DNA of 64,000 nt, from NCBI GenBank assembly GCA_900095095.1, contig FMBT01000345.1:124001-188000 (forward strand), in the 5' to 3' direction. The notes under the pieces were generated by a model that was not told where the DNA came from, ran no database searches, and saw only the letters and a list, made by a program, of their open reading frames with translations. Origin of the DNA: Fragilariopsis cylindrus CCMP1102. Its lineage: Eukaryota > Bacillariophyta > Bacillariophyceae > Bacillariales > Bacillariaceae. A program made the translations under genes and the position numbers. This document shows positions 12,527 through 55,638 of this stretch, piece by piece (within the stretch, counting starts at the first letter, position 1; each line of letters begins with the position of its first letter).

Positions 12527-14556
12527 TTAGGCTGTTGCTAATACACCACTACTACTACCTTTTTTTAATGCACCAATTTGGGATGCAGCTGGACTATTCG
12601 AAGAATCAATGATACCACCCTGTTGTCCATTAAAGCCACGTGTCGATGGTGCACCCTCCACACATGGTTCATTCGCCACACGACGATATAAATCCCAATT
12701 CATTTTTAATATTTCAAATTCATCCGATTCACGATAACCACCGGGTATATTATGTTCCTTGGCAAATTTTTGTAAGATACCACGTAACTTCGGATATTTG
12801 GATCGTGGCATGGATGGAAATAAATGATGTTCTAATTGATATTGCATACCACCCCATAACCATTCACTGAATGGATTAGTGGTCACAGCATTCCGTGTGG
12901 ATTGAAATTGTGCTGTGACCCAATCCGATTGATATTCAGAAAACATTTCTTCGGATTGATGTGTGGGTGTTACAATTAAGGCCGAAACAAGTCCCGACAT
13001 GAATATTGCTGGAATATATACTTTATATGGAAATAATGCCAATAATACCGTATAATGTGCAATTAAGGAATACAATCCCGGTTTGGATCCTGGTCGTTTT
13101 TGACGGACACTGGATATCGCCACCTTAATGGAATCAAATCTCCATAAGGCAAACATAAAACTAAATGGTATATAAAAGATATAATGTTGTATTTTACGTA
13201 TCGGATGATCATTTTCTTTGGAGGGTGCCCATTGATATAAAAATGGATCGGTGGCAATATCTTCATCACAACCTTGTTCATTGGCTGATCATGACATGAT
13301 GAGAATAGTTGTTGTTGTTGTAACGTACGTGTGCGTAGAAAGGGAGGAAAGGAATTAGTTAGTAGAGAACTTTTTTTTTTGCGAAACGTAAAAGAAATTA
13401 AAATAGAAAATAAACGCGTATCGTCAACGTCGTCGTTGTCATCATCTCGTTTTCATTTACATAATTAACCTTTAACTTCTGTACTTGTTTTACTACTTAT
13501 ATTAGATTACTTACTTAATGCATGATGTTTATTATGTTTATCGGACCACCATACTGGTAATAATCCAGCAGCATAGGCAGCAAAGTTCCGTATTTTGGGT
13601 GACATACAATATTCATCGACACCATGTATATAATCATGTCCTAACCACCCCGCGGTAGTCATGGACAATCCTAATAAAAAGGTACTCAGTAAATGGAATT
13701 TTGTCCGTGCAGTCAATGCCGCAATTGTTACTAAGGAACCCCAGATTGATAATAATTTATATTCTTGTATCATATTACGTTTCCACCAACCGTCTTGTTC
13801 TAATTGGGTACGTAATGCACGAAAGGCAATTTGTGTTTTCGAATCGACCGGTGCCATAGTTTCTAATAATGTCGAGGTTTCTATTTTACTTTTTGGTAAA
13901 CGTTGATACATTTTACGTCCTTTTTCCGAATGAAACGCATCCATGACTTCGGTCGCATCACGACCATCATACCAATCAATCCAATGTACACCAGCGGGAT
14001 GTGCTTTCCTCCAACCTTATTTAAAGTTAATTCAATTTAAATAATACACAAAAACAAATCAAAACAGAAAAGGTGAAAGGAAGGCAAAACAAAATAATTC
14101 CACATACTCGAAATCAGTGTGTACTCTATTTCTCTACACTGGTATGCAACGACACGACACGACACGAAAACGTAACGTACCTGTTAAGTCATACCAATCA
14201 CCATGAATTCGTACATCTAAGGATGTTTTACAACTTAACCCTTTGTCATCACATTCCGGTACTTCTTTACAATCCGCATTATCATTACATTCCCACGATC
14301 CACCCATTGCATCATGACTTTCTACAATTAGTCCAGGTGCAGTTCCATTTTTATTTAACACAGAAGTTGGTGGCTGGTCGAGTGTGGCAGCAATTAACGC
14401 AGTACGTGAAATTTCTATACCCGTGTATGGAATTATTACGCGTCCATTACTTTTTGGTAGAACGAATGCTGTAGTTCTTGTAACTGTCACTGCCGATGAT
14501 AGTAGTAAAACAGCTGCAACAACAACTACGGTGGATGACATATCCTTCATCATCAT
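12527..14556 (-). CDS. Cytochrome b5-fused front-end fatty-acid or sphingolipid desaturase, three exons
   Basis: A membrane di-iron desaturase. Exons are 14556-14181, 14015-13515 and 13284-12527 (introns 165 and 230 bp, donors GTACGT and GTAAGT), totalling 1635 nt, or 544 residues plus stop. The N-terminus is a hydrophobic signal (VVVVAAVLLLSSAV) followed by TTAFVLPKS, like the Ala-Phe cleavage motif of diatom plastid presequences. A Cys-rich segment (CNDNADCKEVPECDDKGLSC) precedes a cytochrome b5-like domain with HPAG where HPGG is usual. The three His boxes are present: HDYIH, HNKHH and QLEHH. The Gln in the third box marks front-end desaturases. Splicing restores GDWYDLTGWRKAHPAGVHW and HHALTNEQGCDED, supporting the junctions. 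Substrate and exact position of desaturation cannot be told from sequence. A plastid location is inferred from the presequence. Confidence 0.88.
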
Positions 14557-26700: not shown

Positions 26701-28954
26701 CATGTTTGTCGTCATATTGATCATTCTTTATCCCCCTATTGAGCAAGTTATCATGAACGTCGACATCATCATCATCATCATCGTCCGACAAATCACTCAA
26801 ATGTTCTTCTACGTCAGGTGAGAATTCATTCGTCGTCGTTGTCGTTGTCGGTGTAGTTGCCTCCCTCATAGCTTGCTTTGTAGCGACAGCGTGTTCTTCC
26901 CCTTGAATACGAAGATCCCCGATCGCATTACCATCACAATCCCCAGCTCCCGTCATCGTACCACCATCCCCATCGTCGTCATAATCATCATCATCATCAT
27001 CATCATTATCATTCTCATGGGTATTCAATAGTAACAATTTACGTATTGATACAATAATATATCTTCTATTGATATTGTTATCCCACAATCCTTTAATTTC
27101 TTTTAGATTGTGATGCACATTATTTGTACTGTCACCATTACCACCATTATCACCATTGCCGCCACCACCACCCATACCATTTAATATTGCCATACCACCA
27201 TCATTACCAATATTATTTTCATTCAATTCAATATATTGTAATGATGATACATTATTTGTTAATAGAAGTGATCCGATCGCAATTGCACCTCTGTCACCAA
27301 TATGATTAAATCCAAGACATAGTCTTTGAAGATTGATGTTGTACCAGCAACTTTTAATCCATTGCATATAAGTTCGATGGATGTATCATTCATTTTATTT
27401 CCTGATAAATTTAATTGTTGTAATGATGTATTCCTTGATAAAAATCCATATATACCAAATAATTTATTATGATTATCATTCTTATTCTCATTGTTAGATG
27501 TTGATGATGTTGTTGTTGTTGATAATCGATTTATTAAATTATATGATAAATCAATGGACTTGATTTTTGTTGTTTGTGTTTGATGTGCACTACGTCGTGT
27601 GAAGGAGTTAAATATTGCAATACCACCCATTGGGTCTATATCATTTCTTGATAGATCTAATGTTTCAAGTGTAATTGATCTTTCAAAAAATGGACACAAC
27701 TCATCAATACCTTGATGATTCCGAATCTCATTGTTACTTAAATACAATCCCTTTATTTGCAGTGTTGAATTTGATGATGTGTCCGTTAATGCATCACCTA
27801 ACATCTTTAACATATCATTATTAATACCACAATTATTAAATATCAAATCTTGTAAATTAGTCCCACCTCCATACGCTCCATTTGTATTACCTGGTCCTCC
27901 CCCAATTGCTTTTAATGTATCTGCTAATGCAGTCATTTCTGACATACGTAACTGATATCCCGACAAATCAATTGTAGTAATTTCTCTTCTACCACTACCA
28001 CAATCTCTTTGCAATGATAAAATTGTTTGATCAATAACTTCACGGATCATCTGCGGTTGCTGTTGCTGTTGCTGTTGCTGACGAATAGTTTGAGTAGTAG
28101 CAGCATTATTATTATGGAACTTATGATGAAATTTCTGTCTCAATTCGGAGGATGGAATGATTGATTTGTCATCTATGTTTATACTTGTCTTCTCATTTTC
28201 TTGAATCAATTTAAGTTGTTGTGGATTGCCTCCTTGATCCCTTATCGATGATGATAACCCAGCACCTGATGATAACCCAGCACCACCACCAGCAGCTGAT
28301 GCTGATGATGCTGAGACATTACTAGTACGACGGAATCGACGACTAGATCGTTGTCTTTCCCCTGTTCCCGATGATCCCTCATTGTCCCCATCACCTGCTA
28401 ATCGTTTCGCTTGATCTAAAGTAAAACATCCAGCCTGTACACAATATCCCTTATATACAGTATATTTAACATTGACATTGCTGCTATCAAAGTTTTTTTT
28501 GTATTTCTTACTATTCCTGCGTAGTAGTCCTCCTCCTCCCCGTCCTTTTTACTTCCCTCCTCATCAACTCTTTAATGACCTTAAGTTTTACAGTCAGAGG
28601 TTCCCATGTATTACTACCAAAAATATGTAAAATCTTTTTCCTGACACGAGTTTTGGCACATAATGGACACCGGCCTTTCTTTTGGCAAAATTCTTCTAAT
28701 TCTCTTCCCTGCAAATAAACACCCGATGCTACTTCCACTTTTTTGTGTTGTTGTTTTTGTGAATTTGAAGAACGTGTTGGAGCTGTTTTAACAACGGAAC
28801 CTGCTACTACTCCCGGATCTACTGCTCCCGGATCTGCTGCTGCCGGATCTGCTGTACCAGCAGCATCTCCTCCTGCCCATGTACCTGCTGCTATAGACGT
28901 TGACGACGTTGAATTGTTATTGTTACTACTACTATTCCGTCTTGAATTGAACAT
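23764..28954 (-). pseudogene. Composite zinc-module/LRR/CHAT/STAND/UVR/macro-like protein, copy A, frame broken
   Basis: A diverged paralog of copies B and C. In order on the minus strand: Cys module (GRCPLCAKTR, then YKGYCVQAGCFTLDQAKRL); RNase-inhibitor-type LRRs (LETLDLSRNDIDPMGG, LQQLNLSGNKMND); acidic and Gly/Asn-rich linkers; CHAT (LHFSCYGSEHN, IGQAFIDAGVPHVVCCHR); STAND start (FIGREVDIYEILESL, ISGTPGYGKDNV) and Walker B-like PMIVVVDDRSF; UVR-like helices (RRYDVANELKREL); macro-like end (VCWSNEACDLE, IIILSVGPYGSPSG). The frame changes at least eight times, near 28555, 28500, 27335, 25760, 25470, 25010, 24755 and 24572. At both positions where copies B and C have introns, copy A reads straight through. 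It may be a decaying gene, or a gene with consensus indels. The catalytic-site changes seen in B and C are present in other forms here. Confidence 0.7.
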
Positions 28955-30227
28955 GATATATTATCGTCTTGTTTTCACGTGCGTAGGTAGGTAGGTAGGT
29001 AGGCCCGATTGGTAAGCTATATACGATACGTCGGACGTGACGGGCGTAAATGTCTTCTTCTTAGAGACAGTATACGGTAGTGTGCTGACTTCACTTGTTT
29101 TGACTTGACTCGACACAACACCGTCTAGAGAAAAAGGGCAGCAATGTGATATAGAAAAAAGGGCAGTGGATTAATCCAGCGAAAGAGACAAGTGCTGGTA
29201 GTATCACAGACCGACTCGATTTCGACAAGCACCTCAGGCGTGTTGGGTATGTGTGCGTGTGTGTGTGTGTGTGTGTGCGTGTGTTGGGCGTGTGGAATGA
29301 ATCTAATAACAAACAACTCGTTCTTTCCGGTAGTCCGTTGCTTGTCCGAATAGAAACTCTCTGATTATACAGCACTGAACTGTATTGCTTGTTGTTGCAA
29401 ATATATATATTGTTGTGATTATTGTTGCATTGATATATTATATGCGTTCGATACTAAGTATTACGGCACATTTTATTTAAAGGCTCGTTGTAACACACAT
29501 CATTGTTTTTTGGCGGGTAAAAAAGATGTGCAAGAAATAAAAATTGCATTTACAGTACAGTGTATTTTAGTGATATACACGACTGGAAAATAATATTAGC
29601 GTAAATGTACGATGCGATAGCGCGCTTGGAAGTTAGGGGTGCACGGAGGAAGTAAGTACAGTAATTTAGACAAATCAAAATTAATTTTCAAATCAAAAAA
29701 TGAGACTACAGTATGCTTCGATCATAATACAATACTACCGCAGTTCAAAAAAGTTGACAAAGAAGTATTTTTCAAACAAAATATATTATGATGTGTATTG
29801 ATCCCATATTAAAGGACGATATTCACGAAAACCTACAATACGGTACTACATTTGAAAACAAAGTGTCTTTTTATTTACTTTATAGAATAGTTGAGATATA
29901 TTACAACTTCCTATTGTAGTAGCTATTAAATTAGTTCCGTTATACTGTACTATACTGCTGCTGATACATTCCAGAAAAACAAACTATATAAATTTAACTT
30001 GTTTCCCCAATCTTTTTTTGTTTAATAAAAAGTATGCTATGTAATGTGTTATGTGAGGAAGCAGGAAAGAGGAAAAGGATATAGGTTGCATTTTCCCAGG
30101 CCGAAACCTTCCCTTTCCTGGATTCGATTCGATTCGTTCGTCTTTTTCACTTCATTTCATTCCAAATTATTTCTTTATATCATCTGAACTGTCTGTCATC
30201 TGTATGTCATCTGTTCTCATCTGTATA
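28955..30227. other. Intergenic stretch
   Basis: GTAGGTAGGTAGGTAGG lies at about 28983 and a (GT)n run at 29252-29284. The rest is AT-rich with many TACAGTA and ACTGTA motifs at 29550-29960. No supported gene. Confidence 0.45.
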
Positions 30228-39211: not shown

Positions 39212-40105
39212 TGTATATGTCCTTCGTTCGGTTATGATGTGCTTACTTAAAAACAAAGTATCTTGTCTTTTATTTTTTTAAAGGCACATCGTTTTGCATT
39301 TCTCGCGAGATGAATGAAGCGATGCAGCATGATGCTACACAATAGTAGTACACTCCATGCCTCTCTCGCTCTGCTCCGACTTTATGTGATTGATAAAATA
39401 AAGACCAGGACTTCTAGTAGTACTAACCATACCAGTAGCCATACCAGTCTAGTACTCTGTAGGATCCTACTACTTCTAGGCAGTTAGTGGGGAAGGAAAC
39501 GGAGTGCTGAGATTGAACAAAAAACGGACACACGCCGCATAGCTACCTCCGATATAAAGAGCTACTTTACTATAACCTAGCTAGCTAGCTAGCTAGAGCA
39601 GATTATATATTAGGAGACTTTTGAATTGAATTGAATTGAACTGAACTGAACTGAAACGTCAACTAAACTTAACTAAACTAAACTAAACTTCATCTCACAA
39701 AATATCAAGGAAGGGTAGTGTAGAATAAGGCAGAAGCAGAAGACAGCAGCAGAAGACAGGCATCCAATCATCGCATCGCTCTATCCATTTTTATCTCTGG
39801 ACACACACACACACACAAACAAAATTAAAATACACCACCATTCTATTCTATTCTGTACAGTACCGACGTTTTTTTTTGAGTACAGTATAAGGAGACGATA
39901 TTGATCGATCGATCGATCGATTGATCGGATTGATTTTGATCAAAATCGACGGGAGGGTTTGGATTGGATTTGGATTGGATTATTCTCGACCATACCAGCT
40001 TGTGTGCTTGACAGACATAAAATAAAATTGATTTTGTTTTGTTTCGAGAAGGAAAGAAAAGAAAAAAAACTGTCTCATTACAGTACAGTACGGTACAGTA
40101 CAGTT
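39212..40105. promoter_or_regulatory. 5' flank of copy B within the left arm
   Basis: Shared with 54307-55248 on the right arm. Contains CTAGCTAGCTAGCTAG near 39585, pentamer arrays (GAATTGAATTGAACTGAACTG) near 39624-39650, (AC)n, GATCGATCGATCGATCGAT near 39903 and ACAGTACAGTACGGTACAGT just before the ATG at 40106. Conservation between arms simply reflects the duplication. Confidence 0.4.
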
Positions 40106-43100
40106 ATGTCGTCGTCTAATAATAATAATAATAATAATAAATGTGAAAGCAGCGGTGGCGATCATCATCATCAGATAATGCCCCAACAACAACAACAGCA
40201 ACAACCACCACCACAAAATAATAATGGAAATGGAAATGGAAATAATGCAACAGCAACAGCAACAACAGTATCCACATTAACTGGTGAACAATTAGAAGAA
40301 TATTGTTTACAACATGGTTTATGTCCATTATGTACCAGAACAAAAACACATCAAAGAATTGGTCCAGTTCGTGTAAAATTATCATCCTCATCATCATCCT
40401 CATCATCATCATCATCGACTTTGAATAATAATAATCAACAACCAGGATGGGATCCACTGACATTTAGAACAACTAAAACCGAGTATTCAGTATATAAAGG
40501 ATTTTGTATAAAACCTGGATGTTTTACTATTGATCAGGCAAAACGTTTATGTGGCGATATTGGTCCATATCAAACATCAATAGTAGCAGTAGTAGGAGAA
40601 TCACAAAATCAATACGGTTACTATTGCTTTTCAAATGATAATAATAGGAATAATAATAATGGTAGTGGTGGTGCTACTCCTACTCCTTCTGTAAAGAAGA
40701 AGGCGAGGAGGACGACGACGAGGACGACGAGGGAAGCACCAAGAAGAAAGGTAATGGATTTTCTCGCTTATTCGGTGGTAGTGGCAAGAAAAAGAAAAAA
40801 AGAACAAGAACAAAAAGGATTTAGCAACAACTGATACTACTGATACGGTGACTATTAGTCACTCGAACAACAATGGCAATAGCAATAGCAACGGTAATAA
40901 TATCAATGGCAAAAGTAACGACCATCCATCTCCATCGATACCCACACCAACTTCACCAGTAGTATCGACAGAGGAGGAGGAGGATACTTTCGACATCAAA
41001 ATTGCTGACGACCATGGTCCTATTATTGATACTACTACTAACTCTCCTAGTCATCTCACGGGCAAGATCCGACGACGTGATAATGGCGATGGACGAGGAT
41101 GATATGTCAATTGGATCAGCAATGACATCTAATTCAAAGGTTAGAACATCACTCAAGGAACTTTTAAGAGACAGCAACAACAGCATCAGCAACAATCACA
41201 ATCACAACAATTGCCACCAGGTGTTTGTCCATCTATTGCACCAAAAGTGAATCGCACACTTCTCCTTGATTTAAGTCATACTCGGCTGCATCATGTCCAT
41301 GTCCTGGAATTAGTACAATCATTTCAATATGCAACATCATTACAAACTCTCATTCTAGAAAATTGTAAATTAAATGATAATGAATTGGAAGTTATGGGAA
41401 TGGTTTATTTCAACAAAACAAGCATATCAAGCTCATCATCAAACTCATCTAGTCCAATGATGTCATTAGTACGTTTATCATTGCGTTCCAATAAAATTGG
41501 TAATCGTGGTATTGTTGGTGTATGTCAATATTTAAAATCCACATCGACATTAAAAGAATTAGATCTATCTAAAAATTTAATTGGTTCACGTGGTGCATCG
41601 AGTGTCTTACATTCCTTTCGTGATAATGTCAATAATAATGATTCTACTGGTACTGGTACTGGTATAGAAATGATCAATTTTGCACATAATGAAATATGGG
41701 ATGTGGATGATGGTACATTTTTTGCAACAAATACATCTCTGAAGTTATTAAATTTAGAAGGTAATTTTATACATGATGAAGGTATACAAATTATATCTAA
41801 TGGATTACGGAATAATTCGACTGGGACTGTCTTGGAGGAGCTATATTTAGGTTGGAATGGTATAAGTGATGACGGATGTTTATATATATCCAAAATGATT
41901 GAAACTAATCAATCAATTCAAATAATTGGTTTAGGTGGTACGTGTACTAGTATACGGTAGTCAAAATCGTTACTTTACCTTTATATTGTCGTGACTTGAC
42001 GTGATGATCATACTTCCTCCGTGAACCCGTAACTTTGTTGTTCACTCTCTCTCACCCTCTCTCTCTCTCCACACACGCGCACGCGCACACACACACACAC
42101 TTTGTTTTTGTTTTCATTTTCGCTACACCACACCACACTTACGTGCACTGTACGACACAAAAGAAAATGATATTACCAGTATTGGTGGACGTTCGTTATT
42201 AAATTCATTAGCCTACAATACCACAGTAAAGACTATAACTGGATTATATCATAATGAAATTGATCGGAATTTTATAATTGAATCAATATCCAGAATATTG
42301 TATTCAAATTTAGATACCTTAAATTCTGCGAAGAAAGAACAATATCGTAGAATACAATATGAAAATCAAAAAAGTTTCTCAATGAATGCTGGTATGGATA
42401 CATTAGTGGAACCACTTACTGGTACTGGTACTGGTACTGGTAATAGTAGTGGTTTACCAACAATACCTACTGTTGAGGAAGTATCAGAAGGTTCATTAGA
42501 TTGGGCTGATCGTTTATACAATGATGACACAGAACTTGTTGGTAATACTACTAATAGTAGTAGTAGTGCTGTCATAACGAATCTTGGTGAAGTTTCAGTG
42601 ATAGAAAAAGAAGTAGACGATCCAGAGAAAGTACAGCAGCAACAGCAACAACAACAAAATAATAATCTTGACAATGATATAGATGCTAATGCTACTGCTG
42701 GTGGTGGTGTTGTGGTGGAACCAACAACACAATTGGTATCAAATATAAATTATCGGTATGCTGATATGCCACCACCGGTTGAATATTTTGATCGAATTAT
42801 GATATTACAAGCAGCACCACTTATATATCTAGCTTCACAGCAGCAGCAACCAATTCCATTACATGATTTTGATTATGAAATATCTATTATACGTAATTCA
42901 TTAAATAGTTCATCGAATAGATTCGATGCAAAAATTGAGATAGAATTGAATACAGCATCCATTGATACATTTACAACATATATGAAATCATCAGGTAATA
43001 GTAGTGTAGGAGGTAGAATAAGAAGTCGTGTATTACATTATACAGGATTTGGTCATTCCAAACATGTATTCGGATTGGAAGAAAGTAGTAGTAGTTGTAC

Positions 43101-45717
43101 TAGTGGTACTAGTGGTTGTGATGGATATTTAGATGATACATTTGATTTAAATAAATTAAATACATTAGTAAAAGAAGCTTCATCATTACAATTAGTGGTG
43201 GTGAATTCGTATCATTCGGGACGGATTGGTAAAGCATTTGTCGATGCAGGTGTACCACATGTGGTTTGTTGTCATCATCCAGAACTATTTCGTGACAAGG
43301 CCGCGAATTCCTTCTTAACCAATTTTTATCGTGGCTTGGGATCGAATAAATCATTACAACAATCGTTTGATTGTGCACAAGAATCAATCCGTGTCGAAGA
43401 AATATCCAAACATGTCGAACGGTATGTATTATTACCACGACGTGATAATGAAGAGAAAGATGATTATGATCCATCGTATCATGATATACCAATTTTTTAT
43501 ACTAATCCTGTATCTTTAGTAGAAAATAATGGTGCAGATACTAAGATTTTAAATGAAAAGGCAAGAAATATGTTACCAAAATTACCAAGATACTTTATTG
43601 GACGTGAAATTGAAATGTGTAAAGTATTAGTTGCATTGCGTGATACTAATACTAATATTGTAAGAATAGGTGGTATAAAGGGAATTGGAAAAGCATCATT
43701 AGCGATTGCTGTTTGTCGGTACAGTAAGTTTTAGTTTAGTGCATTTATTCAAATAAAATCTTGTTGCTGGAACGTTATATATACGTAATCTGTTTTTGGC
43801 GTGTCTGTGCCGTGTCGTGCCGTTAAGCTTGTCATATGTATCTATCTATTTTTATGCCTCACTTTTATGCTTTTGTCTTCCCCCTTCCCCTTACTTTGAT
43901 TTGAATATCTATCGTACCATATAGTACAACAACGATACAAATCTTTCAAATTTGATGATGTATTTTGGTTACCCGCTGTACGTGGTGTCATTCCAGAAGA
44001 AGATACACTCTTTGCTGACTTGGTTGAATACACTAAACTAATGATGAAGGTAAAAGAAGCAGATCATCATGGTATACATATAACTGAAGATGATGAAGAT
44101 GCATTAGAATGTCGAGAACGGATTGATATTGAATTAGAGGGTCGAAAATGTTTACTGGCAATTGATAGTAGACAATTTCGAAATAAGGTTGCATCTGAAA
44201 ATCTTGAAAATTTCCTGGAAGAACTACTAAATAATTCTGATCTTGATATAAAAATTATTTTAATCAATTCTAACGACGACGACGACGACGACGACGACAA
44301 ACAAGAAGATGCTACTATACGATTAGGGCCGATTAGCTTTAAATCAACTGCATTATTGTTTGGGGCGATATCACGTTTTATCACAGCTAATGGTTGCCCC
44401 GCTGCACAATCGCCGGATGAATATGCTGATCTTATGGTCCCTCCATCGGTTGCTAATATTGTCCCCGATGAACAGCAACAAAATAACGATAATAATAGAA
44501 CAATTTCGATGAGAAGAGAACGATTGATGTCTATCATGGGTAACGGCATACCATTGGATGTGATTAAGGTAGGAAAGACTATGCCCGCCAGTGTCTTTAT
44601 TCGTCTAATAGGTATGGCGAATACACCTGAAGTTAAAATAGATTCAATTGAGAACCTGGAAGGTGCAATTTCGAAGTGGACAAATCGAATGGATTATGCT
44701 ATATCGAATATGAATTATTTTCGTGCGATGGATCTAGAACACGTTCTTAAGGAGCTCAAGGGACAGAAATCAAAATTCCCAAGTATCGATGATCTTGTTG
44801 CGAAAGAAAAAGAATTGCATCGGAAACATACACTGTGTTTCAAAACAAGACAGTATGAAGAAGGGAATCGGATCAGGAGAGAAATATTAGCTTTGAAGAA
44901 ACACATCATGCGTGAAAAGCGATTGGCTTCTTCACGTCAGACACCGACTGCAAATTTAACACAATCTCAAACTGACAAGATTGCAAATATTCAAGCAAAG
45001 ATGGATTCAATAATGAAACTCGCGAATTCATCCTTTAGTTCACTCAATGATGTACATTCTCCAGACAAGACAGAAGCTACGTTCCGACTCGGATCTGCCT
45101 ACCATAGTTGTGATCTTTGTATATACTCCGGCTTCGTCGAGAATTTTGATCCAGGTAATGATTTAGGTGCATCCGTTTGCTGGACAAATGAGAGTTGTGA
45201 TCTTAATCTGGACGAAAAGGGATCATCGTTGTCAGAATTTGGTGGTGTAAATCTTGATCAAGATATTAAATCACTTCCCGGTATTGCCGAAACACCATGG
45301 GGAATCGTGAAGTGTGGAACGGGGAATGCTGTGATTGTTGGACCGGGCAATTATGACGATTTACGTGTTCATTGTGTCATTTTAGCAGTCGGTCCTGTAT
45401 CTCCTACACGTGATGAAGTATTCGATGAGAACGATGAAGATTCCTTGCATTTTATGACTGTTATGATGAGATCTTGTATACGATCAAGTTTTATACTTGC
45501 TAAGCATTCTCAAGTTCAATCGATTGCGTTCCCAACATTAACTACCAAAGTCGGATCTTCTACGTATGAGAGTACTCTATTAACTAATTTGAAATTACTT
45601 GTTGATGAAGCCAAATTTTCAGACTTAAATACATTACATATTGTGGCAAGTTCTATAGAGGAATCAAGCAAGTTGATTGAAATGGCTCTAACAATGGGTC
45701 TAGCTATGTTAGAATAA
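40106..45717 (+). pseudogene. Composite zinc-module/LRR/CHAT/STAND/UVR/macro-like protein, copy B, exon 1 broken
   Basis: Left-arm twin of copy C. Exons by analogy: 40106-41937, 42164-43723, 43925-45717 (introns 226 and 201 bp, GTACGT and GTAAGT donors). Their sum, 5185 nt, is not a multiple of three. Exon 1 differs from copy C by small indels: one base lost near 40694 (GTAAAG for GTAATAG), changes near 41088 and 41166, and a compensated pair at about 41398 that turns IGNGLFQS into MGMVYFN. Exons 2 and 3 are fully open and encode CHAT (VLHYTGFGHSKH, VVNSYHSGRIG, VVCCHHPELF), the STAND P-loop region (RIGGIKGIGKASLA) and the macro-like end. Exons 2-3 could be translated only if another start is used. 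The decay could also be consensus error. Confidence 0.7.
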
Positions 45718-46470
45718 GAATATTATGCATATAAAAGATAAAATGTTTATGTTCGATATTTAGTTTTTCCCCGTCTTCTAGCTCTACAGTAGAACAGTAG
45801 TAGTAGTCTTAATCATAGTTGGACTACTTATGATATCGTATTGTCCTTCGTAGCATCCGAGGGCAACGAGGAATAAATAATGACGAAAGATTGCGATTTC
45901 TTAGTGTATTGAATTAATGTGTACAGTAATTTAAATTTACTGCTTTCTAAAGTAATTCATCCGTGCAACGCTTGATTCATCGCACGCGCTATCGTGAGGA
46001 ATTATTAAACGATAAAAGCACGTTGAACCCTTAAAATCTTTTTTTTTTCTCGTACATTTCGCATTTTGTGGGTAGATTTTAAGGGTTCAAACGCGCTTTC
46101 GTGTTAATTTTCAAACGCTGCTAGCGCGTACGAATAATGTCAGCCACGTTACTGCAAGAAGGCGGGATTCAAAATGAAGTATCTGTACGATTTTATGTCC
46201 GGTGGCCATTGAATTGCTGTAGTTAACTACTGTTTTGATTTCATCTATCAATTTCTACTTCATCTCTAAAATTATTCGGATCAATAGACACCATCGTCGC
46301 CGTATGATTGTTCAATTTTTGTTGATGTTGTTGTTGTCGTCGTCGTGAGCCTGAGATTGAAGAAAATCAATCTATAATACATGCGCTGCTGTACGCGGGA
46401 ACACCCCACGAACGAAGTGAGGAGCAAGTGAAAAAGTACTATATACTACTACTACTACTAGTAGTCATAA
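45718..46470. other. Left-arm spacer between copy B and the oxidoreductase exon
   Basis: Matches 47939-48691 of the right arm almost base for base. Holds the hairpin at 46023-46089 and (TAC)n at about 46445-46460. No gene. Confidence 0.5.
46023..46089. repeat. Hairpin with 17-bp arms, possible fold-back element (left arm)
   Basis: TTGAACCCTTAAAATCT (46023-46039) is the exact reverse complement of AGATTTTAAGGGTTCAA (46073-46089), with about 33 nt between. Weaker complementarity continues outward for some 50 bp (CGCTATCG/TTAAACGATAAAAGC against CGCTTTCGTGTTAATTTT). This is suggestive of a small non-autonomous fold-back element of about 170 bp. Confidence 0.6.
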
Positions 46471-46598
46471 TCATTCATAATATCTATCTAATCTAAATGG
46501 TGTCAAATCAATACAATATGATTTACCATATAATGTTATTTCTGCAATAGCTTTACCTGTTGATAGACCTTGTAATATCCCCGATACAATATGTCCGG
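46471..46598 (-). pseudogene. Terminal exon of a FAD-dependent oxidoreductase (left arm)
   Basis: After an acceptor-like tract ending in AACAATAG, the minus strand encodes GHIVSGILQGLSTGKAIAEI and CIDLTPFRLDRYYE, then a stop. This matches the C-terminus of sarcosine- or glycine-oxidase-like (DAO family) enzymes, where GH, TGK-AE and DL-PF-DR are typical. The rest of the gene is absent: the half alpha-kinase lies 140 bp upstream. It is therefore an isolated exon, carried identically in both arms. Confidence 0.6.
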
Positions 46599-46738
46599 CT
46601 ATTGTTAAAAAACGATAACAATAACAATAGAAAAAAGTGACGGGTCAACAACAACAGTTCCCAAGACTTCCGCTTATAGATGGGATGGAACGCTTGCACA
46701 TAATAATGTGGTGATTATTACCATTCTCTATATTTAAT

Positions 46739-47200
46739 TTATTCACTTTCATTTGGAAGGCCAAGAAGCCGACAGAGGTCATTACATTGGTGAGTATGGA
46801 AAAATGCCTTCATTCCTTTTTCGCCACGATCTGTTCTGCCAAAAGTATATTTCCTGAGTTTTTCTTTTTTCTTCTTTCTACGTTTGTGAATCACTGGATC
46901 TGTTAGTTTGTAGCATTTTGTCCCGTCTACTGGATTTATTGCCAACACACCTTGCAGATCTACCACCATGAAATATCGTTTGCTCTTTTCATATGTAAAA
47001 TGACTGAAGGATTGGGGAATATGTGCGTCTTTAATGGACTTGATATTATAGGACCCCCTATCCGGAGCATTCTGTGTTTCTTCAATTAGCTCGTCATCAG
47101 AATCATCTTCTTCTTCTTCTTCTTCACTATCCACTTCTACAATAGCACCAAGGCCCAAGCCACCCAAGGAAGGACCATTGCCGATTCCAAGATTACCCAT
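46739..47200 (-). pseudogene. C-terminal half of an alpha-kinase, truncated at the palindrome centre (left)
   Basis: 153 residues. After a Gly-rich and acidic start (DSEEEEEEDDSDDE) the frame carries the alpha-kinase (MHCK/eEF2K) C-lobe: PQSFSHFTYEKSKRYFMVVD, LQGVLAINP, KLTDPVIHK, FGRTDRGEKGMKAFFHTHQC and NDLCRLLGLP. The metal-binding Asp of VVDLQG and the zinc-site pattern H-x-H-x-C-x3-C are present. The N-lobe with the ATP-binding Lys and Gly-rich loop is not, because the frame starts only 4 bp from the centre. A full alpha-kinase domain is about 200 residues or more. Probably a broken gene; a short zinc-fold product cannot be excluded. Confidence 0.75.
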
Positions 47201-47208
47201 CGCGAGCG

Positions 47209-47670
47209 ATGGGTAATCTTGGAATCGGTAATGGTCCTTCCTTGGGTGGCTTGGGCCTTGGTGCTATTGTAGAAGTGGATAGTGAAGAAGAAGAAGAAGA
47301 AGATGATTCTGATGACGAGCTAATTGAAGAAACACAGAATGCTCCGGATAGGGGGTCCTATAATATCAAGTCCATTAAAGACGCACATATTCCCCAATCC
47401 TTCAGTCATTTTACATATGAAAAGAGCAAACGATATTTCATGGTGGTAGATCTGCAAGGTGTGTTGGCAATAAATCCAGTAGACGGGACAAAATGCTACA
47501 AACTAACAGATCCAGTGATTCACAAACGTAGAAAGAAGAAAAAAGAAAAACTCAGGAAATATACTTTTGGCAGAACAGATCGTGGCGAAAAAGGAATGAA
47601 GGCATTTTTCCATACTCACCAATGTAATGACCTCTGTCGGCTTCTTGGCCTTCCAAATGAAAGTGAATAA
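47209..47670 (+). pseudogene. C-terminal half of an alpha-kinase, truncated at the palindrome centre (right)
   Basis: Mirror image of the left copy, with the same 153-residue product and one silent difference seen (GGC against GGT in codon 7 or 8). Its ATG lies 8 bp from the opposite ATG, so neither copy has room for its own promoter or 5' UTR apart from the other arm's coding sequence. The same conserved C-lobe motifs are intact. The lack of any degradation suggests that the duplication is young or that the arms are being homogenised. Confidence 0.75.
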
Positions 47671-47810
47671 ATTAAATATAGAGAATGGTAATAATCACCA
47701 CATTATTATGTGCAAGCGTTCCATCCCATCTATAAGCGGAAGTCTTGGGAACTGTTGTTGTTGACCCGTCACTTTTTTCTATTGTTATTGTTATCGTTTT
47801 TTAACAATAG

Positions 47811-47938
47811 CCGGACATATTGTATCGGGGATATTACAAGGTCTATCAACAGGTAAAGCTATTGCAGAAATAACATTATATGGTAAATCATATTGTATTG
47901 ATTTGACACCATTTAGATTAGATAGATATTATGAATGA
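47811..47938 (+). pseudogene. Terminal exon of a FAD-dependent oxidoreductase (right arm)
   Basis: Identical in protein to the left-arm exon (46598-46471). It follows an acceptor TTTTTTAACAATAG and ends in TATGAATGA. No upstream exon can be found between it and the half alpha-kinase, so it is a relic captured in the palindrome. Confidence 0.6.
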
Positions 47939-48691
47939 TTATGACTACTAGTAGTAGTAGTAGTATATAGTACTTTTTCACTTGCTCCTCACTTCGTTCG
48001 TGGGGTGTTCCCGCGTACAGCAGCGCATGTATTATAGATTGATTTTCTTCAATCTCAGGCTCACGACGACGACAACAACAACATCAACAAAAATTGAACA
48101 ATCATACGGCGACGATGGTGTCTATTGATCCGAATAATTTTAGAGATGAAGTAGAAATTGATAGATGAAATCAAAACAGTAGTTAACTACAGCAATTCAA
48201 TGGCCACCGGACATAAAATCGTACAGATACTTCATTTTGAATCCCGCCTTCTTGCAGTAACGTGGCTGACATTATTCGTACGCGCTAGCAGCGTTTGAAA
48301 ATTAACACGAAAGCGCGTTTGAACCCTTAAAATCTACCCACAAAATGCGAAATGTACGAGAAAAAAAAAAGATTTTAAGGGTTCAACGTGCTTTTATCGT
48401 TTAATAATTCCTCACGATAGCGCGTGCGATGAATCAAGCGTTGCACGGATGAATTACTTTAGAAAGCAGTAAATTTAAATTACTGTACACATTAATTCAA
48501 TACACTAAGAAATCGCAATCTTTCGTCATTATTTATTCCTCGTTGCCCTCGGATGCTACGAAGGACAATACGATATCATAAGTAGTCCAACTATGATTAA
48601 GACTACTACTACTGTTCTACTGTAGAGCTAGAAGACGGGGAAAAACTAAATATCGAACATAAACATTTTATCTTTTATATGCATAATATTC
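47939..48691. other. Right-arm spacer with hairpin at 48319-48386
   Basis: Reverse complement of 45718-46470. The hairpin arms are 48319-48335 and 48370-48386. The A run beside it has 10 bases where the left arm has 9 T. No gene. Confidence 0.5.
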
Positions 48692-51600
48692 TTATTCTAA
48701 CATAGCTAGACCCATTGTTAGAGCCATTTCAATCAACTTGCTTGATTCCTCTATAGAACTTGCTACAATATGCAATGTGTTGAGGTCTGAAAATTTGGCT
48801 TCATCAACAAGTAATTTCAAATTAGTTAATAGAGTACTCTCATACGTAGAAGATCCGACTTTGGTAGTTAATGTTGGGAACGCAATCGATTGAACTTGAG
48901 AATGCTTAGCAAGTATAAAACTTGATCGTATACAAGATCTCATCATAACAGTCATAAAATGCAAGGAATCTTCATCGTTCTCATCGAATACTTCATCACG
49001 TGTAGGAGATACAGGACCGACTGCTAAAATGACACAATGAACACGTAAATCGTCATAATTGCCCGGTCCAACAATCACAGCATTCCCCGTTCCACACTTC
49101 ACGATTCCCCATGGTGTTTCGGCAATACCGGGAAGTGATTTAATATCTTGATCAAGATTTACACCACCGAATTCTGACAACGATGATCCCTTTCCGTCCA
49201 GATTAAGATCACAACTCTCATTTGTCCAGCAAACGGATGCACCTAAATCATTACCTGGATCAAAATTCTCGACGAAGCCGGGATATATACAAAGATCACA
49301 ACTATGGTAGGCAGATCCGAGTCGGAACGTAGCTTCTGTCTTGTCTGGAGAATGTACATCATTGAGTGAACTAAAGGATGAATTCGCGAGTTTCATTATT
49401 GAATCCATCTTTGCTTGAATATTTGCAATCTTGTCAGTTTGAGATTGTGTTAAATTTGCAGTCGGTGTCTGACGTGAAGAAGCCAATCGCTTTTCACGCA
49501 TGATTTGTTTCTTCAAAGCTAATATTTCTCTCCTGATCCGATTCCCTTCTTCATATTGTCTTGTTTTAAAACACAGTGTATGTCTCCGATGCAATTCTTT
49601 TTCTTTCGCAACAAGATCATCGATACTTGGGAATTTTGATTTCTGTCCCTGGAGCTCCTTAAGAACGTGTTGAAGATCCATTGCACGAAAATAATTCCTA
49701 TTCGATATAGCATACTCCATTCGATTTGTCCACTTCGAAACTGCACCTTTCAGGTTCTCAATTGAATCTATTTTTACTTCAGGTGTATTCGCCATACCTA
49801 TCAGACGAATAAAGACACTGGCGGGCATAGTCTTTCCTACCTTAATCACATCTAATGGTATACCGTTACCCATGATGGACATCAATCGTTCTCTTCTCAT
49901 CGAAATTGTTCTATTATCATTCTTTTTTTTTTGCTGTTCATTGGGGACAATATTAGCAACCGATGGAGGGACCATAAGATCAGCATATTCATCCGGTGAT
50001 TGTGCAGCGGGGCAACCATTAGCTGTAATGAAACGTGATATCGCTCCAAATAATAATGCAGTTGATTTAAAGCTAATCGGTCCTAATCGTATCGTAGCAT
50101 CTTCTTGTTGTTTGTTGTCGTCGTCGTTAGAATTGATTAAGATAATTTTAATATCAAGATCAGAATTATTTAGTAATTCTCCTAAGAAATTTTCAAGATT
50201 TTCAGATGCAACCTTATTTCGAAATTGTCTACTATCGATTGCCAGTAAACATTTTCGACCTTCTAATTCAATATCAATCCGTTCTCGACATTCTAGTGCA
50301 TCTTCATCGTCAGTTAGTATATCATGATGATCTGCTGCTACACACTTCACCATTAGTTTTGTGTATTCAACTAAATCAGCAAAGAGTGTATCTTCTTCTG
50401 GAATGACACCACGTACAGCAGGTAACCAAAATACGTCATCAAATTTGAAAGATTTGTATCGCTGTTGTACTATACGGTACGATAGATATTCAAATCAAAA
50501 GTTGTACAAGTAGTAGTAGTAGTAGTACCGGTAGTAGCACAAGGGGAAAGGGGAAGACAAAAACATAAATAAGTGAGGCTTTAAATAGATAGATACATAT
50601 GACAAGCTTAACGACACGGCACGGCACGGCAAAAACAAATTGCGTAAATAACGTTCCAGCAACAAGATTTTATTTAAATTTAGATGCACTGCACTAACAC
50701 TTACTGTATCGACAAACAGCAATCGCTAATGATGCTTTTCCAATTCCCTTTACACCACCTATTCTTACAATATTAGTATTCGAATCACGCAATGCAACTA
50801 ATACTTTACACATTTCAATTTCACGTCCAATAAAGTATCTTGGTAATTTTGGTAATACATTGATGGCAGTTTCATTTGCATCCCTATTATTGACATCATT
50901 ATTATTTTCTTCTAATACTAGTACAGGATTAGTATAAAAAATTGGTATATCATGATACGATGGATCATAATCATCTTTCTCTTTATTATCACGTCGTGGT
51001 AATAATACATACCGTTCGACATGTTTGGATATTTCTTCGACACGGATTGATTCTTGTGCACAATCAAACGATTGTTGTAATGATTTATTCGATCCCAAGC
51101 CACGATAAAAATTGGTTAAGAAGGAATTCGCGGCCTTGTCACGAAATAGTTCTGGATGATGACAACAAACCACATGTGGTACACCTGCATCGACAAATGC
51201 TTTACCAATCCGTCCCGAATGATACGAATTCACCACCACTAATTGTAATGATGAAGCTTCTTTTACTAATGTATTTAATTTATTTAAATCAAATGTATCA
51301 TCTAAATATCCATCACAACCACTAGTACCACTAGTACTACTTTCTTCAAATCCGAATACATGTTGTGGATGACCAAATCCTGTAAAATGTAATACACGAC
51401 TTCTTTGTATACCTACACTACTAACTGATGCTTTCATAAATGTTGTAAATGCATCAATGGATGCTGTATTAATTTCTATATCAATTTTGGCATCGAATCT
51501 ATTCAAGGAACTATCTAATGAATTACGTATAATAGATATTTCATAATCAAAATCATGTAATGGTATTGGTTGCTGCTGTTGCCGTTGTTCTTGGTCTGTT

Positions 51601-54306
51601 TGTGATGATGATAGATATATAAGTGGTGCTGCTTGTAATATCATAATTCGATCAAAATATTCAACCGGTGGTGGCATATCAGCATACCGATAATTTATAT
51701 TTGATACCAATTGTGTTGTTGGTTCCACCACAACAGCAGCGGCAGCATCTACATCATTGTCAACATTATTATTTTTTTTTGGTTGCTGTTGCTGTACTTT
51801 CTCTTGATCGTCTTCTTTTTCTATTGCTGAAACTTCACCAAGATTCGTGATGACAACACTACTACTACTAACAAGTTCTGTGTCATCATTATATAAACGA
51901 TCAGCCCAATCTAATGAACCTTCTGATACTTCCTCAACAGTAGGTATTGTTGGTAAACCACTACTATTACCAGTACCAGTACCAGTAAGTGGTTCCACTA
52001 ATGTATCCATACCAGCATTCATTGAGGAACGTTTTTGATTTTCATATTGTATTCTACGATATTGTTCTTTCTTGACAGAATCTAAGGTATCTAAATTTGA
52101 ATACAATATTCTGGATATTGATTCAATTATAAAATTCCGATCAATTTCATTATGATATAATCCAGTTATAGTCTTTACTGTGGTATTGTAAGCTAATGAA
52201 TTTAATAACGAACGTCCACCAATGCTGGTAATATCATTTTCTTTTGTGTCGTAGTGCACGTAAGTGTGGTGTGGTGTAGCGAAAAATGAAAACAAAAACA
52301 AAGTGTGTGTGTGCGCGCGCGCGTGTGAGAGAGATATGAGAGAGAGGGTGAGAGAGAGGGTGAACAACAAAAAAGTTACGGGTTCACGGAGGAAGTATGA
52401 TCATCACGTCAAGTCACGACGATAAAAGGTAAAGTAACGATTTTGACTACCGTATACTAGTACACGTACCACCTAAACCAATTATTTGAATTGATTGATT
52501 AGTTTCAATCATTTTGGATATATATAAACATCCGTCATCACTTATACCATTCCAACCTAAATATAGCTCCTCCAAGACAGTCCCAGTCGAATTATTCCGT
52601 AATCCATTAGATATAATTTGTATACCTTCATCATGTATAAAATTACCTTCTAAATTTAATAACTTCAGAGATGTATTTGTTGCAAAAAATGTACCATCAT
52701 CCACATCCCAGATTTCATTATGTGCAAAATTTATCATTTCTATACCAGTACCAGTACCAGTACCAGTACCAGTAGTAGCATTATTATTGACATTATCACG
52801 AAAGGAATGTAAGACACTCGATGCACCACGTGAACCAATTAAATTTTTGGATAGATCTAATTCTTTTAATGTCGATGTGGATTTTAAATAGTGACATAAA
52901 CCAACAATACCACGATTACCAATTTTATTGGAACGCAATGATAAACGTACTAATGACATCATTGGACTAGATGAGTTTGATGATGAGCTGGATATGCTTG
53001 TATTTGATTGAAATAAACCATTCCCAATAACTTCTAATTCGTTATCATTTAATTTACAATTTTCTAGAATGAGTGTTTGTAATGATGTTGCATATTGAAA
53101 TGATTGTACTAATTCCAGGACATGGACATGATGCAGCCGAGTATGACTTAAATCAAGGAGAAGCGTACTATTCACTTTTGGTGCAATAGATGGACAAACA
53201 CCTGGTGGCAATTGTTGTGATTGTGATTGTTGCTGTTGTTGTTCGAGCAGTAGTTCCTTCAATGAAGTACGTACTTTTGAATTAGATGTCATTGCTGATC
53301 CAATTGACATGTCATCATCGTCCTCGCCATTATCACGTCGTCGGATCTTGCCCGTTCGAGGACTAGGAGAGTTAGTAGTAGTATCAATAATAGGACCGTC
53401 ATGGTCATCAGCAATTTTGATGTCGAAAGTATCCTCCTCCTCCTCTGTAGATACTACTGGTGAAGTTGGTGTTGGTATCGATGGAGATGGATGGTCTTTA
53501 CTATTGCCATTAACATTATTACCGTTGCTATTGCTATTGCCATTGTTGTTCGAGTGACTAATAGTCACCGTATCAGTATCAGTTGCTAACTCCTTCTTTT
53601 TGTTCTTGTTCTTTTTCTTCTTTTTCTTGCCACTACCACCGAATAATCGAGAAAATCCATTCCCTTTCTTCTTGGTGCTTCCCACATCGTCGTCCTCGTC
53701 GTCGTCCTCCTCCTCGCCTTCTTCTATTACAGAAGGAGTAGGAGTAGCACTACCACTACCATTATTATTATTATTATTATCATTTGAAAAGCAATAGTAA
53801 CCGTATTGATTTTGTGATTCTCCTACTATTGATGTTTGATATGGACCAATATCACCACATAAACGTTTTGCTTGATCAATAGTAAAACATCCAGGTTTTA
53901 TACAAAATCCTTTATAGACTGAATAATCGGTGTTATTTGTTCTAAATGTAAATGGATCCCATCCTGCTTGTTGTTTAGTATTCAAAGTCGATGACGATGA
54001 AGAGGATGAGGATGATGATGAGGATGATAATTTTACACGAACTGGACCAATTCTTTGATGTGTTTTTGTTCTGGTACATAATGGACATACACCATGTTGT
54101 AAACAATATTCTTCTAATTGTTCACCAGTTAATGTTGATGCTGTTGTTGCTGTTGCATTATTTCCATTTCCATTTCCATTTCCATTATTATTTTGTGGTG
54201 GTTGCTGTTGTTGTTGTTGTTGGGGCATTATCTGATGATGATTATCGCCACCGCTGCTGCTTTCACATTTATTATTATTATTATTATTATTATTAGACGA
54301 CGACAT
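48692..54306 (-). CDS. Composite zinc-module/LRR/CHAT/STAND/UVR/macro-like protein, copy C, intact
   Basis: An NLR-like signalling protein by architecture. Exons 54306-52470, 52240-50705 and 50469-48692 total 5151 nt, giving 1716 residues; introns are 229 and 235 bp (GTACGT and GTAAGT donors). Domains: Gln/Asn-rich start (1-60); Cys module, Cys68, 74, 77, 135 and 140 (GVCPLCTRT, FCIKPGC); acidic/Lys-rich linker; LRRs about 385-660 (LEELYLGWNGISDDG; splicing restores IIGLGENDITSIGG); CHAT about 809-1030; STAND NTPase from FIGREIEM with GGVKGIGKAS at 1107-1116 and LLAID at 1199-1203; two UVR-like segments (YFRAMDLQHVLKEL and RQYEEGNRIRREIL, about 1380-1450); macro-like domain about 1530-1710 (CWTNESCDLN, FGGVNLDQDI, VILAVGPV). 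Expected catalytic CHAT residues and the Walker A Ser/Thr look substituted. Ligand and partners are unknown. Confidence 0.85.
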
Positions 54307-54596
54307 AACTGTACTGTACTGTAAATGAGACAGTTTTTTTTCTTTTCTTTCCTACTCGAAACAAAACCAAATCAATTTTATTTTATGTCTCTATCAAGCA
54401 CAAAGCTGGTAGGTATGGTCGAGAATAATCCAATCCAATCCAATTCAATCCAAACCCTACCGTCGATTTTGATCAAATCAATCCGATCAATCGATCGATC
54501 GATCAATTATTGTCTCCTTATACTGTACTCAAAAAAACAAAAAAAAACGTCGGGTACTGGTACAGAATAGAATAGAATGATGGTGTATTTTAATTT

Positions 54597-54635
<39 letters not shown>

Positions 54636-55638
54636 AGAGATAAAAATGGATAGAGCGATGATTTGATGCCTGTCTTCTGCTGCTGTCTTCTGCTTCTGCT
54701 TTATTCTACACTACCCTTCCTTGATATTTTGTGTGAGATGAAGTTAAGTTAACTTAATTAAGTTAAGTTAAGTTTAGTTGACGTTTCAGTTCAGTTCAGT
54801 TCAATTCAATTCAATTCAAAAGTCTCCTACTATATAATCTGCTTCTAGCTAGCTAGCTAGCTAGGTTACAGTAAAGTAGCTCTTTATTATCGGAGGTAGG
54901 TATGCGGCGTGTGTCCGTTTTTGTTCAATCTCAGCACTCCGTTTCCTTCCCCACTAACTGCCTTGTAGTAGTAGGATCCTACAGTACTATACTGTACTGG
55001 TATGGCTACGGGTATGGTTAGTACTACTAGAAATCCTGGTCTTATTTTATCAATCACAAAAAGTCGGAGAGCGAAGAGGCATGGAGTATGTGTACTACTG
55101 TGTAGCATCCATCATGCTGCATCGCTCACTTCCTTCTCGCGAGAAATGCAAAACGCAATGCAGGATGTTCCTCACTTCGATTGTGCCTTTAAAAAAATAA
55201 AATAAGATACTTTGTTTTTAGTAAGCACATCATAACCGAACGAAGGACATACAGTACAGTAATGGTAAATTAGCGCTGACTTGGAGGAAGTAATAGAATA
55301 GCGAAAATTATTTCTCGCGCGTCTCCGCTAAACAGAGAGCGGTAAGTACTAAGGCAGCTAGCTAGCCACCTCTTATAATATAGAGCTAGCTAGCCTAATC
55401 AACTGACAAACTACTACTACTGTACAGTAAAGTATCTAACTACTAACTTCTGTATCAAAAAAAAAAGTAATTTTAGAAAATATGAATACTATGAATGTAA
55501 TAATTTTCTACATATTGTGTATTATTAATAGTGATATCTCTACGTACAGTACAGTACAGTACAGTACTATTCTCCTGACTGAATACCTCCCTCCAACTGT
55601 TGACTCGACTGTTGTTCTTCTGTACTGTATTATTTGTA
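54307..55638. promoter_or_regulatory. 5' flank of copy C (right arm) and spacer to the next gene
   Basis: 54307-55248 mirrors 39212-40105, with differences such as a longer (GT)n at 54600-54632. From 55249 to 55638 the sequence is unique: GCTAGCTAGC near 55360, ACAGTACAGTACAGTACAGT at about 55546. No gene. Confidence 0.45.

What the first reader, a model, noticed from the sequence alone, without database searches (positions are those of the whole stretch)
48692..54306. A composite NLR-like protein: zinc-like module, LRR, CHAT, STAND, UVR-like, macro-like domain in one chain
Copy C is an intact 1716-residue frame over three exons whose lengths sum exactly to a multiple of three. Its order, LRR, then a caspase-like CHAT domain, then a STAND P-loop region, then a macro-like domain, joins an effector, a sensor and a possible ADP-ribose-binding module. 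CHAT and STAND domains are known partners in bacterial and fungal defence or cell-death proteins, but I do not know of this full arrangement with a terminal macro-like domain. Three family members lie within 31 kb. An NLR-like stress or immune role in the alga is inference.
Basis: partly seen in the sequence, partly recalled or inferred. Interest (0 to 1): 0.92.

Follow-up and report, generated by a model that had tools for sequence, protein, structure and literature searches.

The report
Diatom immune-receptor-like protein, dead protease
An alga, most likely a diatom, has a gene for a large immune-receptor-like protein whose built-in protease has lost its catalytic residues and whose nucleotide and ADP-ribose sites look altered, yet the protein is well conserved in about a hundred relatives, which suggests it works as a regulator or scaffold instead of an enzyme.

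The parts
48692..54306 (-). Copy C: intact three-exon gene, 1716 aa, LRR-CHAT-STAND-coiled coil-macro
   Evidence: frame, introns; Pfam; many homologues over 97-100% of residues 370-1716
52470..54306 (-). Exon 1 of copy C (Cys module, low-complexity region, most of LRR)
50705..52240 (-). Exon 2 of copy C (end of LRR, CHAT, P-loop); intron 1 is 52241-52469
48692..50469 (-). Exon 3 of copy C (rest of STAND, coiled coil, macro); intron 2 is 50470-50704
53845..54129 (-). N-terminal Cys-rich (zinc-like) module, residues 60-154
   Evidence: five Cys in 32 of 32 rows; model; no PDB match
52131..53166 (-). Leucine-rich repeats, residues 381-649 (interrupted by intron 1)
   Evidence: LRR_6; coordinates
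50925..51656 (-). CHAT domain, residues 808-1051
51375..51377 (-). CHAT catalytic-His position: Phe901
51222..51224 (-). CHAT catalytic-Cys position: Tyr952
49763..50855 (-). STAND NTPase core, about residues 1075-1360 (interrupted by intron 2); GxP-like motif at 49847-49873; no further ARC2/winged-helix part recognised
   Evidence: end points from my residue numbering
50733..50759 (-). Walker A GGVKGIGKA: the Ser/Thr position is Ala1115
50228..50248 (-). Walker B-like LLAIDSR
49361..49750 (-). Helical coiled-coil (UVR-like) region
48695..49309 (-). Macro-fold domain, residues 1512-1716; CWTNES at 49214-49231 keeps one pocket Asn (49220-49222), glycine-rich loop absent
39905..45717 (+). Copy B: inverted near-copy of C, exon 1 frame broken, exons 2-3 in frame (start taken from the stop-to-stop frame)
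23764..28960 (-). Copy A: diverged paralogue (group III), broken frame; CHAT dyad positions Tyr/Thr and Walker A GKD, read by eye
39216..55251 (.). Palindrome carrying B and C: arms 39216-47203 and 47206-55251

Best explanation
Copy C belongs to a family of NLR-like multidomain proteins, most probably of raphid diatoms, that arose when a macro domain was joined to an LRR-CHAT-STAND chain. SHOWN by sequence or model: the domain folds; loss of the CHAT His/Cys dyad, of the Walker A Ser/Thr and of the macro catalytic loop in C; constraint on the protein. INFERRED: C does not cleave protein, probably does not cycle ATP as a canonical STAND switch, and probably does not hydrolyse ADP-ribose. It acts as a pseudo-enzyme scaffold. 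The LRR and/or the altered macro pocket bind a ligand or partner, the coiled coil and STAND core oligomerise, and the emptied but conserved CHAT cleft binds a client. That client is perhaps a catalytically intact CHAT-STAND protein, one of which this genome encodes on contig C527, regulated as c-FLIP regulates caspase-8 (analogy recalled).
For: Fold. Catalytic positions were fixed by aligning the family to SAVED-CHAT 8tl0: H of 'GHG' and C of 'NAC' (their catalytic role is recalled) fall on Phe901 and Tyr952. In the 42-row crown clade that holds C (support 100), 0 of 42 rows have the Cys, yet 17-residue windows over that loop average 92-95% majority residue against 72% for CHAT as a whole. The dyad is intact in 11 of 105 scored macro-bearing rows and 30 of 32 macro-less rows. 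Walker A Ser/Thr: 40 of 106 macro-bearing, 24 of 30 macro-less rows scored. Macro: the Asn of W-x-N-E is kept in 101 of 102 rows, but GGGGVD, present in this genome's stand-alone macro protein on C46/C566, is absent from the 9 family rows aligned to it, and the loop 2 Gly is Lys in 65 and Gly in 1 of 106 rows. PMC5413906 (passages read) gives N30, G37 and D40 as distal-ribose contacts. GDAP2, a macro domain also matched here, seems not to bind ADP-ribose derivatives (PMC6501648, passage read). Constraint: B/C dN/dS 0.36 and 12 of 12 in-frame indels in exons 2-3. Intact paralogue: C527.
Against: No biochemical, expression or localisation data exist here. Eleven macro-bearing relatives keep the dyad, so the family as a whole is not purely non-catalytic. 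The macro-dyad association is not independent: the pairs test found 2 independent pairs and no difference in the dyad, and the basal macro-bearing rows P0097 and P0130 are still intact, so macro gain seems to precede dyad loss. Six of 30 macro-less rows also lack the Walker A Ser/Thr, so that loss is not special to the macro family. STAND in C itself was not hit by Pfam, and a 4-row STAND profile found no significant PDB chain. Partnership with C527 is only a guess.
Confidence: 0.5

Rival explanations
1. C is an active NLR-like cell-death protease: LRR senses, STAND oligomerises, CHAT cleaves a substrate, as in fungal and bacterial CHAT-gasdermin systems.
For: CHAT fold and relatives with intact dyads; a CHAT protease activates a gasdermin in the fungus P. 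anserina (PMC12881547, passages).
Against: His is Phe and Cys is Tyr in C; no Cys in 42 of 42 crown rows. No gasdermin family hit in the genome, though no control genome rang either, so that search is uninformative.
Confidence: 0.06
2. The protein is a conserved diatom scaffold with no defence role (cell cycle, silica, trafficking or RNA-related); LRR plus macro only mediate binding.
For: RanGAP-like annotation given by a source to several homologues; strong conservation and three ancient paralogue groups, and only one cluster of the macro family found in this genome, unlike a large receptor repertoire; GDAP2-type macro has some affinity for poly(A) (PMC6501648).
Against: Relatives join CHAT-STAND to kinase, PDZ, SH2, ARM or LRR parts, a receptor-like mix; frequent change at catalytic sites.
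Confidence: 0.34
3. The family senses a nucleotide ligand through a re-shaped macro pocket; CHAT and STAND are passive spacers.
For: Macro is the best conserved of the five stretches scored in the crown (mean 0.776; LRR and Cys module not scored), with near-invariant WTNE and KCGTGNAVIVGPGNY; one pocket Asn kept in 101 of 102.
Against: The emptied CHAT Cys loop is about as conserved as the macro motifs, so CHAT is not a mere spacer.
Confidence: 0.08
4. The locus is a decaying pseudogene or an assembly artefact.
For: A is broken and B's exon 1 frame is broken; the palindrome is identical over 1.2 kb near the centre of each arm, as a fold-back could give.
Against: C is intact; dN/dS 0.36; in-frame indels; conserved splice sites; palindrome homology stops at both outer ends (39216 and 55251) with unrelated flanks.
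Confidence: 0.02

Closest known systems
SAVED-CHAT protease (PDB 8tl0; type III CRISPR effector)
   Different: No SAVED domain; C lacks His and Cys; eukaryotic LRR/STAND/macro context
CHAT proteases of fungal gasdermin clusters (PMC12881547, passages)
   Same: CHAT as part of NLR-like or repeat proteins
   Different: In the NLR-type ones the protease is the N-terminal module and is taken as active; here CHAT sits between LRR and STAND and is inactive by sequence in C
NLRs of animals and plants; brown-algal NB-ARC-TPR and LRR-ROCO candidate receptors (PMC11378527 passages; PMC10197012 passages)
   Same: P-loop NTPase plus repeats
   Different: LRR lies N-terminal, Walker A Ser/Thr lost in C, no recognised ARC2/winged helix, extra CHAT and macro
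NB-ARC and NACHT proteins of the diatom Thalassiosira pseudonana, reported in a cell-death context (PMC5599023, passage)
   Same: STAND NTPases in a diatom, linked by those authors to programmed cell death
   Different: No CHAT, LRR or macro part is mentioned in the passage; their sequences were not compared here
MacroD-type macrodomains (OiMacroD 5lau/5l9k, MACROD1/2) and GDAP2
   Different: Glycine-rich loop and D40 equivalent absent, NAAN is CWTN, loop 2 Gly is mostly Lys
LRR-CHAT-STAND relatives without macro (P0066, P0109, P0111; own-genome C527 copy)
   Same: LRR-CHAT-STAND order, homologous STAND
   Different: His/Cys intact, no coiled coil plus macro recognised

Membership tests
CHAT (Pfam PF12770) | Profile score over curated cut-off and CHAT fold | tested here: met
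CHAT (Pfam PF12770) | Catalytic His and Cys | tested here: not met
   Phe901 and Tyr952. C has the CHAT fold but is not a CHAT protease by sequence
Macro domain (PF01661) | Macro fold / profile | tested here: met
Macro domain (PF01661) | ADP-ribose pocket: Asn, glycine-rich loop, Asp, loop 2 Gly | tested here: not met
   Only the Asn kept. Binding itself was not tested
STAND/NB-ARC NTPase | Homology to the STAND core | tested here: met
   By relatives: P0042 and P0066 over cut-offs; hhalign 99.1% over 244 columns to P0066. Not significant against PDB sequences
STAND/NB-ARC NTPase | Walker A GxxxxGK[ST] | tested here: not met
   GVKGIGKA in C; Ser/Thr in 40 of 106 macro-bearing rows
STAND/NB-ARC NTPase | ARC2 / winged-helix after ARC1 | tested here: inconclusive
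   None recognised between the GxP motif and the coiled coil; the STAND part was not folded and searched alone
NLR (NB-LRR receptor) | Effector-NBD-LRR order | tested here: not met
   LRR is N-terminal to CHAT and STAND
NLR (NB-LRR receptor) | Immune or cell-death function | not testable with these tools
   No functional data
UVR motif (PF02151) | Profile score over cut-off | tested here: not met
   No hit in C; 19.1 vs 21.5 in relative P0135

The most novel reading that the evidence does not exclude
Diatoms built an intracellular receptor family of clustered, anciently diverged paralogues from three enzyme folds (caspase-like CHAT, STAND NTPase, macro). They then repeatedly erased the active sites (fewest changes 6 at Cys and 10-12 at His on the trees of 67 and 115 rows) while freezing the folds. 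The paralogues of different groups work as genomic pairs, like sensor/executor NLR pairs, and the pseudo-proteases gate the intact CHAT-STAND proteins of the same cell.
Probability: 0.25. Interest if true: 0.85.

Novelty: new variant of a known kind. Interest (0 to 1): 0.68.

Why it matters
In the library searched (PMC open-licence papers), no listed title or abstract described CHAT proteins or this architecture in diatoms. STAND proteins as such are in print: a Thalassiosira pseudonana study reports an NB-ARC and a NACHT protein in a cell-death context (PMC5599023, passage). If the reading holds, diatoms carry an old receptor-like family with several pseudo-enzyme modules, conserved well enough for reverse genetics. 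It would make diatom immunity or self/non-self signalling testable. It would also show CHAT, described as an active protease in the passages read here, reused as a pseudo-protease.

Tried and rejected
Separate-gene model: rejected, since single homologous chains and transcripts carry all domains. STAND profile against PDB sequences: no significant chain. Cys module against PDB structures: nothing. PADLOC gave only weak partial matches (mad8, SAVED_CHAT, others) in P0042 and P0054 and none in P0010, P0066 or P0036. NCBIfam gave weak macro matches, far under cut-off, in P0010, P0042 and P0036. Gasdermin search: no hit, no control rang, so no conclusion. SPX/Vtc4 entries at the top were set aside: rmsd 28-30 A, and they seem to ride on macro and helical parts. 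A causal link between macro gain and dyad loss: not supported by independent pairs. A group II copy in this genome: none found. Literature: 10 searches used; PMC10197012, PMC12881547, PMC5413906, PMC6501648, PMC11378527, PMC5599023 and PMC5756287 were read as passages only; all others were seen as search listings, and listings were cut (for instance 12 of 72 papers).

Limits: each protein search scored only the 7983, 7990 or 7996 candidates sharing most words. Same-contig pairs were found by eye, from equal longest-contig length plus a shared source; no contig was read. P0080 and P0131 (macro-less) also share a contig length, of 6.57 Mb, too long to count. Trees: 'quick' and FastTree, no bootstrap, several long branches; the tree used 67 of 138 rows and CHAT-STAND columns only. 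The 66-row tree gives fewer changes (His 5, Cys 4, Walker A 12). Rows dropped before counts: P0067 (LRR only) throughout; P0049. P0049 and P0108 are truncated family members, counted among the 32 macro-less rows. The large structure model is of P0013, not of C.
Full report
What is there. Copy C occupies 54306-48692 on the minus strand. Exons of 1837, 1536 and 1778 nt (introns 229 and 235 nt, GT-AG) give 1716 aa with no internal stop. Pfam finds LRR_6, CHAT and Macro above their curated cut-offs in the separate exons, Macro only just (22.7 against 22 bits). STAND is cut in two by intron 2 and is not seen by Pfam in C's exon pieces. The P-loop (FIGREIEM ... GGVKGIGKA), a Walker B-like LLAIDSR and a GxP motif (GNGIPL) are present. 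The motif names are recalled.

Is it a real gene and one chain? Three protein searches returned 138 distinct proteins. Of these plus C (139 rows), 138 match a profile of the CHAT-to-macro part, and 106, C included, carry the macro part; 97 of the 106 also show similarity to C's LRR stretch. Many cover 97-100% of the queried stretch. MMETSP-named transcripts P0010, P0037, P0051 and P0083 are among them. Macro-bearing hits whose organism is shown are from Nitzschia inconspicua, Cylindrotheca fusiformis, C. closterium, Nitzschia sp. Nitz4, an MMETSP0014 strain (name cut off at 'Nitzs', taxid 2857) and Bacillariaceae MAGs. Named macro-less relatives include Seminavis robusta, Nitzschia inconspicua and the ciliate Moneuplotes crassus. 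B and C differ with dN/dS 0.36 (92.25 synonymous and 124.75 non-synonymous differences, 1677 codons). All 12 indels in exons 2-3 are multiples of three, against 12 of 18 in exon 1.

Catalytic sites. The 8tl0 alignment places the catalytic pair on C's Phe901 and Tyr952. Among 105 macro-bearing rows with both positions scored, 49 lack both residues, 25 keep His only, 20 keep Cys only and 11 keep both; one further row has a gap. Among 32 macro-less rows 30 keep both; the two that do not, P0049 and P0108, are truncated family members. In the 42-row crown clade of C none has Cys, mostly Phe or Tyr instead. Yet 17-residue windows over LVVVNS[FY]HSGRIGKAF average 92-95% majority residue against 72% for the whole CHAT. 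Walker A Ser/Thr is present in 40 of 106 macro-bearing and 24 of 30 macro-less rows. The fewest changes are, for His, Cys and Walker A, 12, 6 and 14 on 115 rows; 10 and 6 for His and Cys on 67 rows; 5, 4 and 12 on 66 rows.

Against over-reading this: the independent-pairs test found only two independent contrasts between macro-bearing and macro-less rows, and the dyad did not differ in them. The macro domain seems to have been gained first and the dyad lost later, inside the family.

Macro pocket. This genome also encodes a stand-alone macro protein on C46 and C566 (330 of 359 aligned residues identical) with NAAN and GGGGVDG. Aligned to it, nine family rows show CWTN or the like for NAAN and no glycine-rich loop, and TTK-V for SAGIF in loop 2 of C. 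The loop 2 Gly position is Lys in 65 and Gly in 1 of 106 rows. The Asn equivalent to OiMacroD N30 is kept in 101 of 102 rows. In OiMacroD, N30, G37 and D40 hold the distal ribose (PMC5413906, passages). GDAP2's macro seems not to bind ADP-ribose derivatives but has some affinity for poly(A) (PMC6501648, passage). ADP-ribose hydrolysis is therefore unlikely; binding is open.

Locus and family history. B and C are arms of a palindrome, 39216-47203 and 47206-55251. Identity, gaps left out, is 100% over 1.2 kb near the centre (45934-47133 on B's side), 69 of 71 at the very centre, and 92-99% further out. The homology ends at both outer borders with unrelated flanks, which speaks for a real inverted duplication. 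Copy A belongs to another ancient group (best matches P0104, P0101, P0090 and P0091) and is broken. Trees split the macro family into groups I (C), II and III. Six pairs of proteins share both contig length and a source: P0020/P0070, P0026/P0076, P0103/P0068, P0089/P0073, P0095/P0092 and P0117/P0052. All six join different groups, as A and B/C do here. No group II copy was found in this genome. A catalytically intact LRR-CHAT-STAND protein without recognised macro lies on C527.

Mechanism. Shown: architecture, folds, lost residues, constraint. Inferred: a pseudo-protease scaffold or regulator, with ligand or partner binding by LRR and/or macro, and oligomerisation by STAND and coiled coil. A regulatory link to an intact CHAT-STAND paralogue is the most interesting version and is untested. 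An immune role is plausible by architecture only.

Novelty. In the library I saw no listed paper on CHAT proteins or on this architecture in diatoms; listings were cut, and subscription journals and most preprints are not held. NB-ARC and NACHT proteins of Thalassiosira pseudonana are in print in a cell-death context (PMC5599023, passage), so diatom STAND proteins as such are not new. The parts are known kinds; the combination, its wide conservation and the repeated loss of its active sites make it a new variant of a known kind.

Noticed in passing
39216-55251: Near-perfect 8-kb-arm palindrome with a 2-nt spacer; arms identical near the centre and 92-99% alike outward (gaps left out), with sharp outer borders, as gene conversion or a recent inverted duplication would give.
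   Followed up: partly
46739-47263 (-) and 47146-47670 (+): C-terminal part of an alpha-kinase (PF02816, 86 bits) mirrored at the palindrome centre; only profile positions 117-185 match there. Several other alpha-kinase loci exist in the genome.
   Followed up: partly
G000 C527 about 43272-44801 (L006, L007): LRR-CHAT-STAND protein without recognised macro and with CHAT His/Cys intact.
   Followed up: partly
G000 C46 (L022) and C566 (L023): Stand-alone macro protein with canonical NAAN and GGGGVDG in two near-identical copies on two contigs, perhaps haplotypes.
   Followed up: partly
P0107, P0127, P0136, P0114 (homologue proteins): CHAT-STAND module joined to a protein kinase (P0107), PDZ (P0127, STAND seen only by the family profile), SH2 (P0136) or ARM plus LRR (P0114, STAND weak): a modular receptor-like set.
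   Followed up: no
P0020/P0070, P0026/P0076, P0103/P0068, P0089/P0073, P0095/P0092, P0117/P0052: Proteins with equal longest-contig length and a shared source; each pair joins two different ancient paralogue groups, suggesting conserved clustering.
   Followed up: partly
53845-54129: Cys-rich N-terminal module conserved in the family with no PDB fold match.
   Followed up: partly
12527-13288 (-): Fatty-acid desaturase domain (PF00487, 71.6 bits); the neighbouring frame 13507-14016 looks like its N-terminal part by eye.
   Followed up: no
Precomputed Pfam PF27087 and PF27089 on homologues: Two recent Pfam families listed for many members were not reported by the local library; PF27087 also tags an LRR-only protein (P0067), so it may be an LRR-type model.
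   Followed up: no
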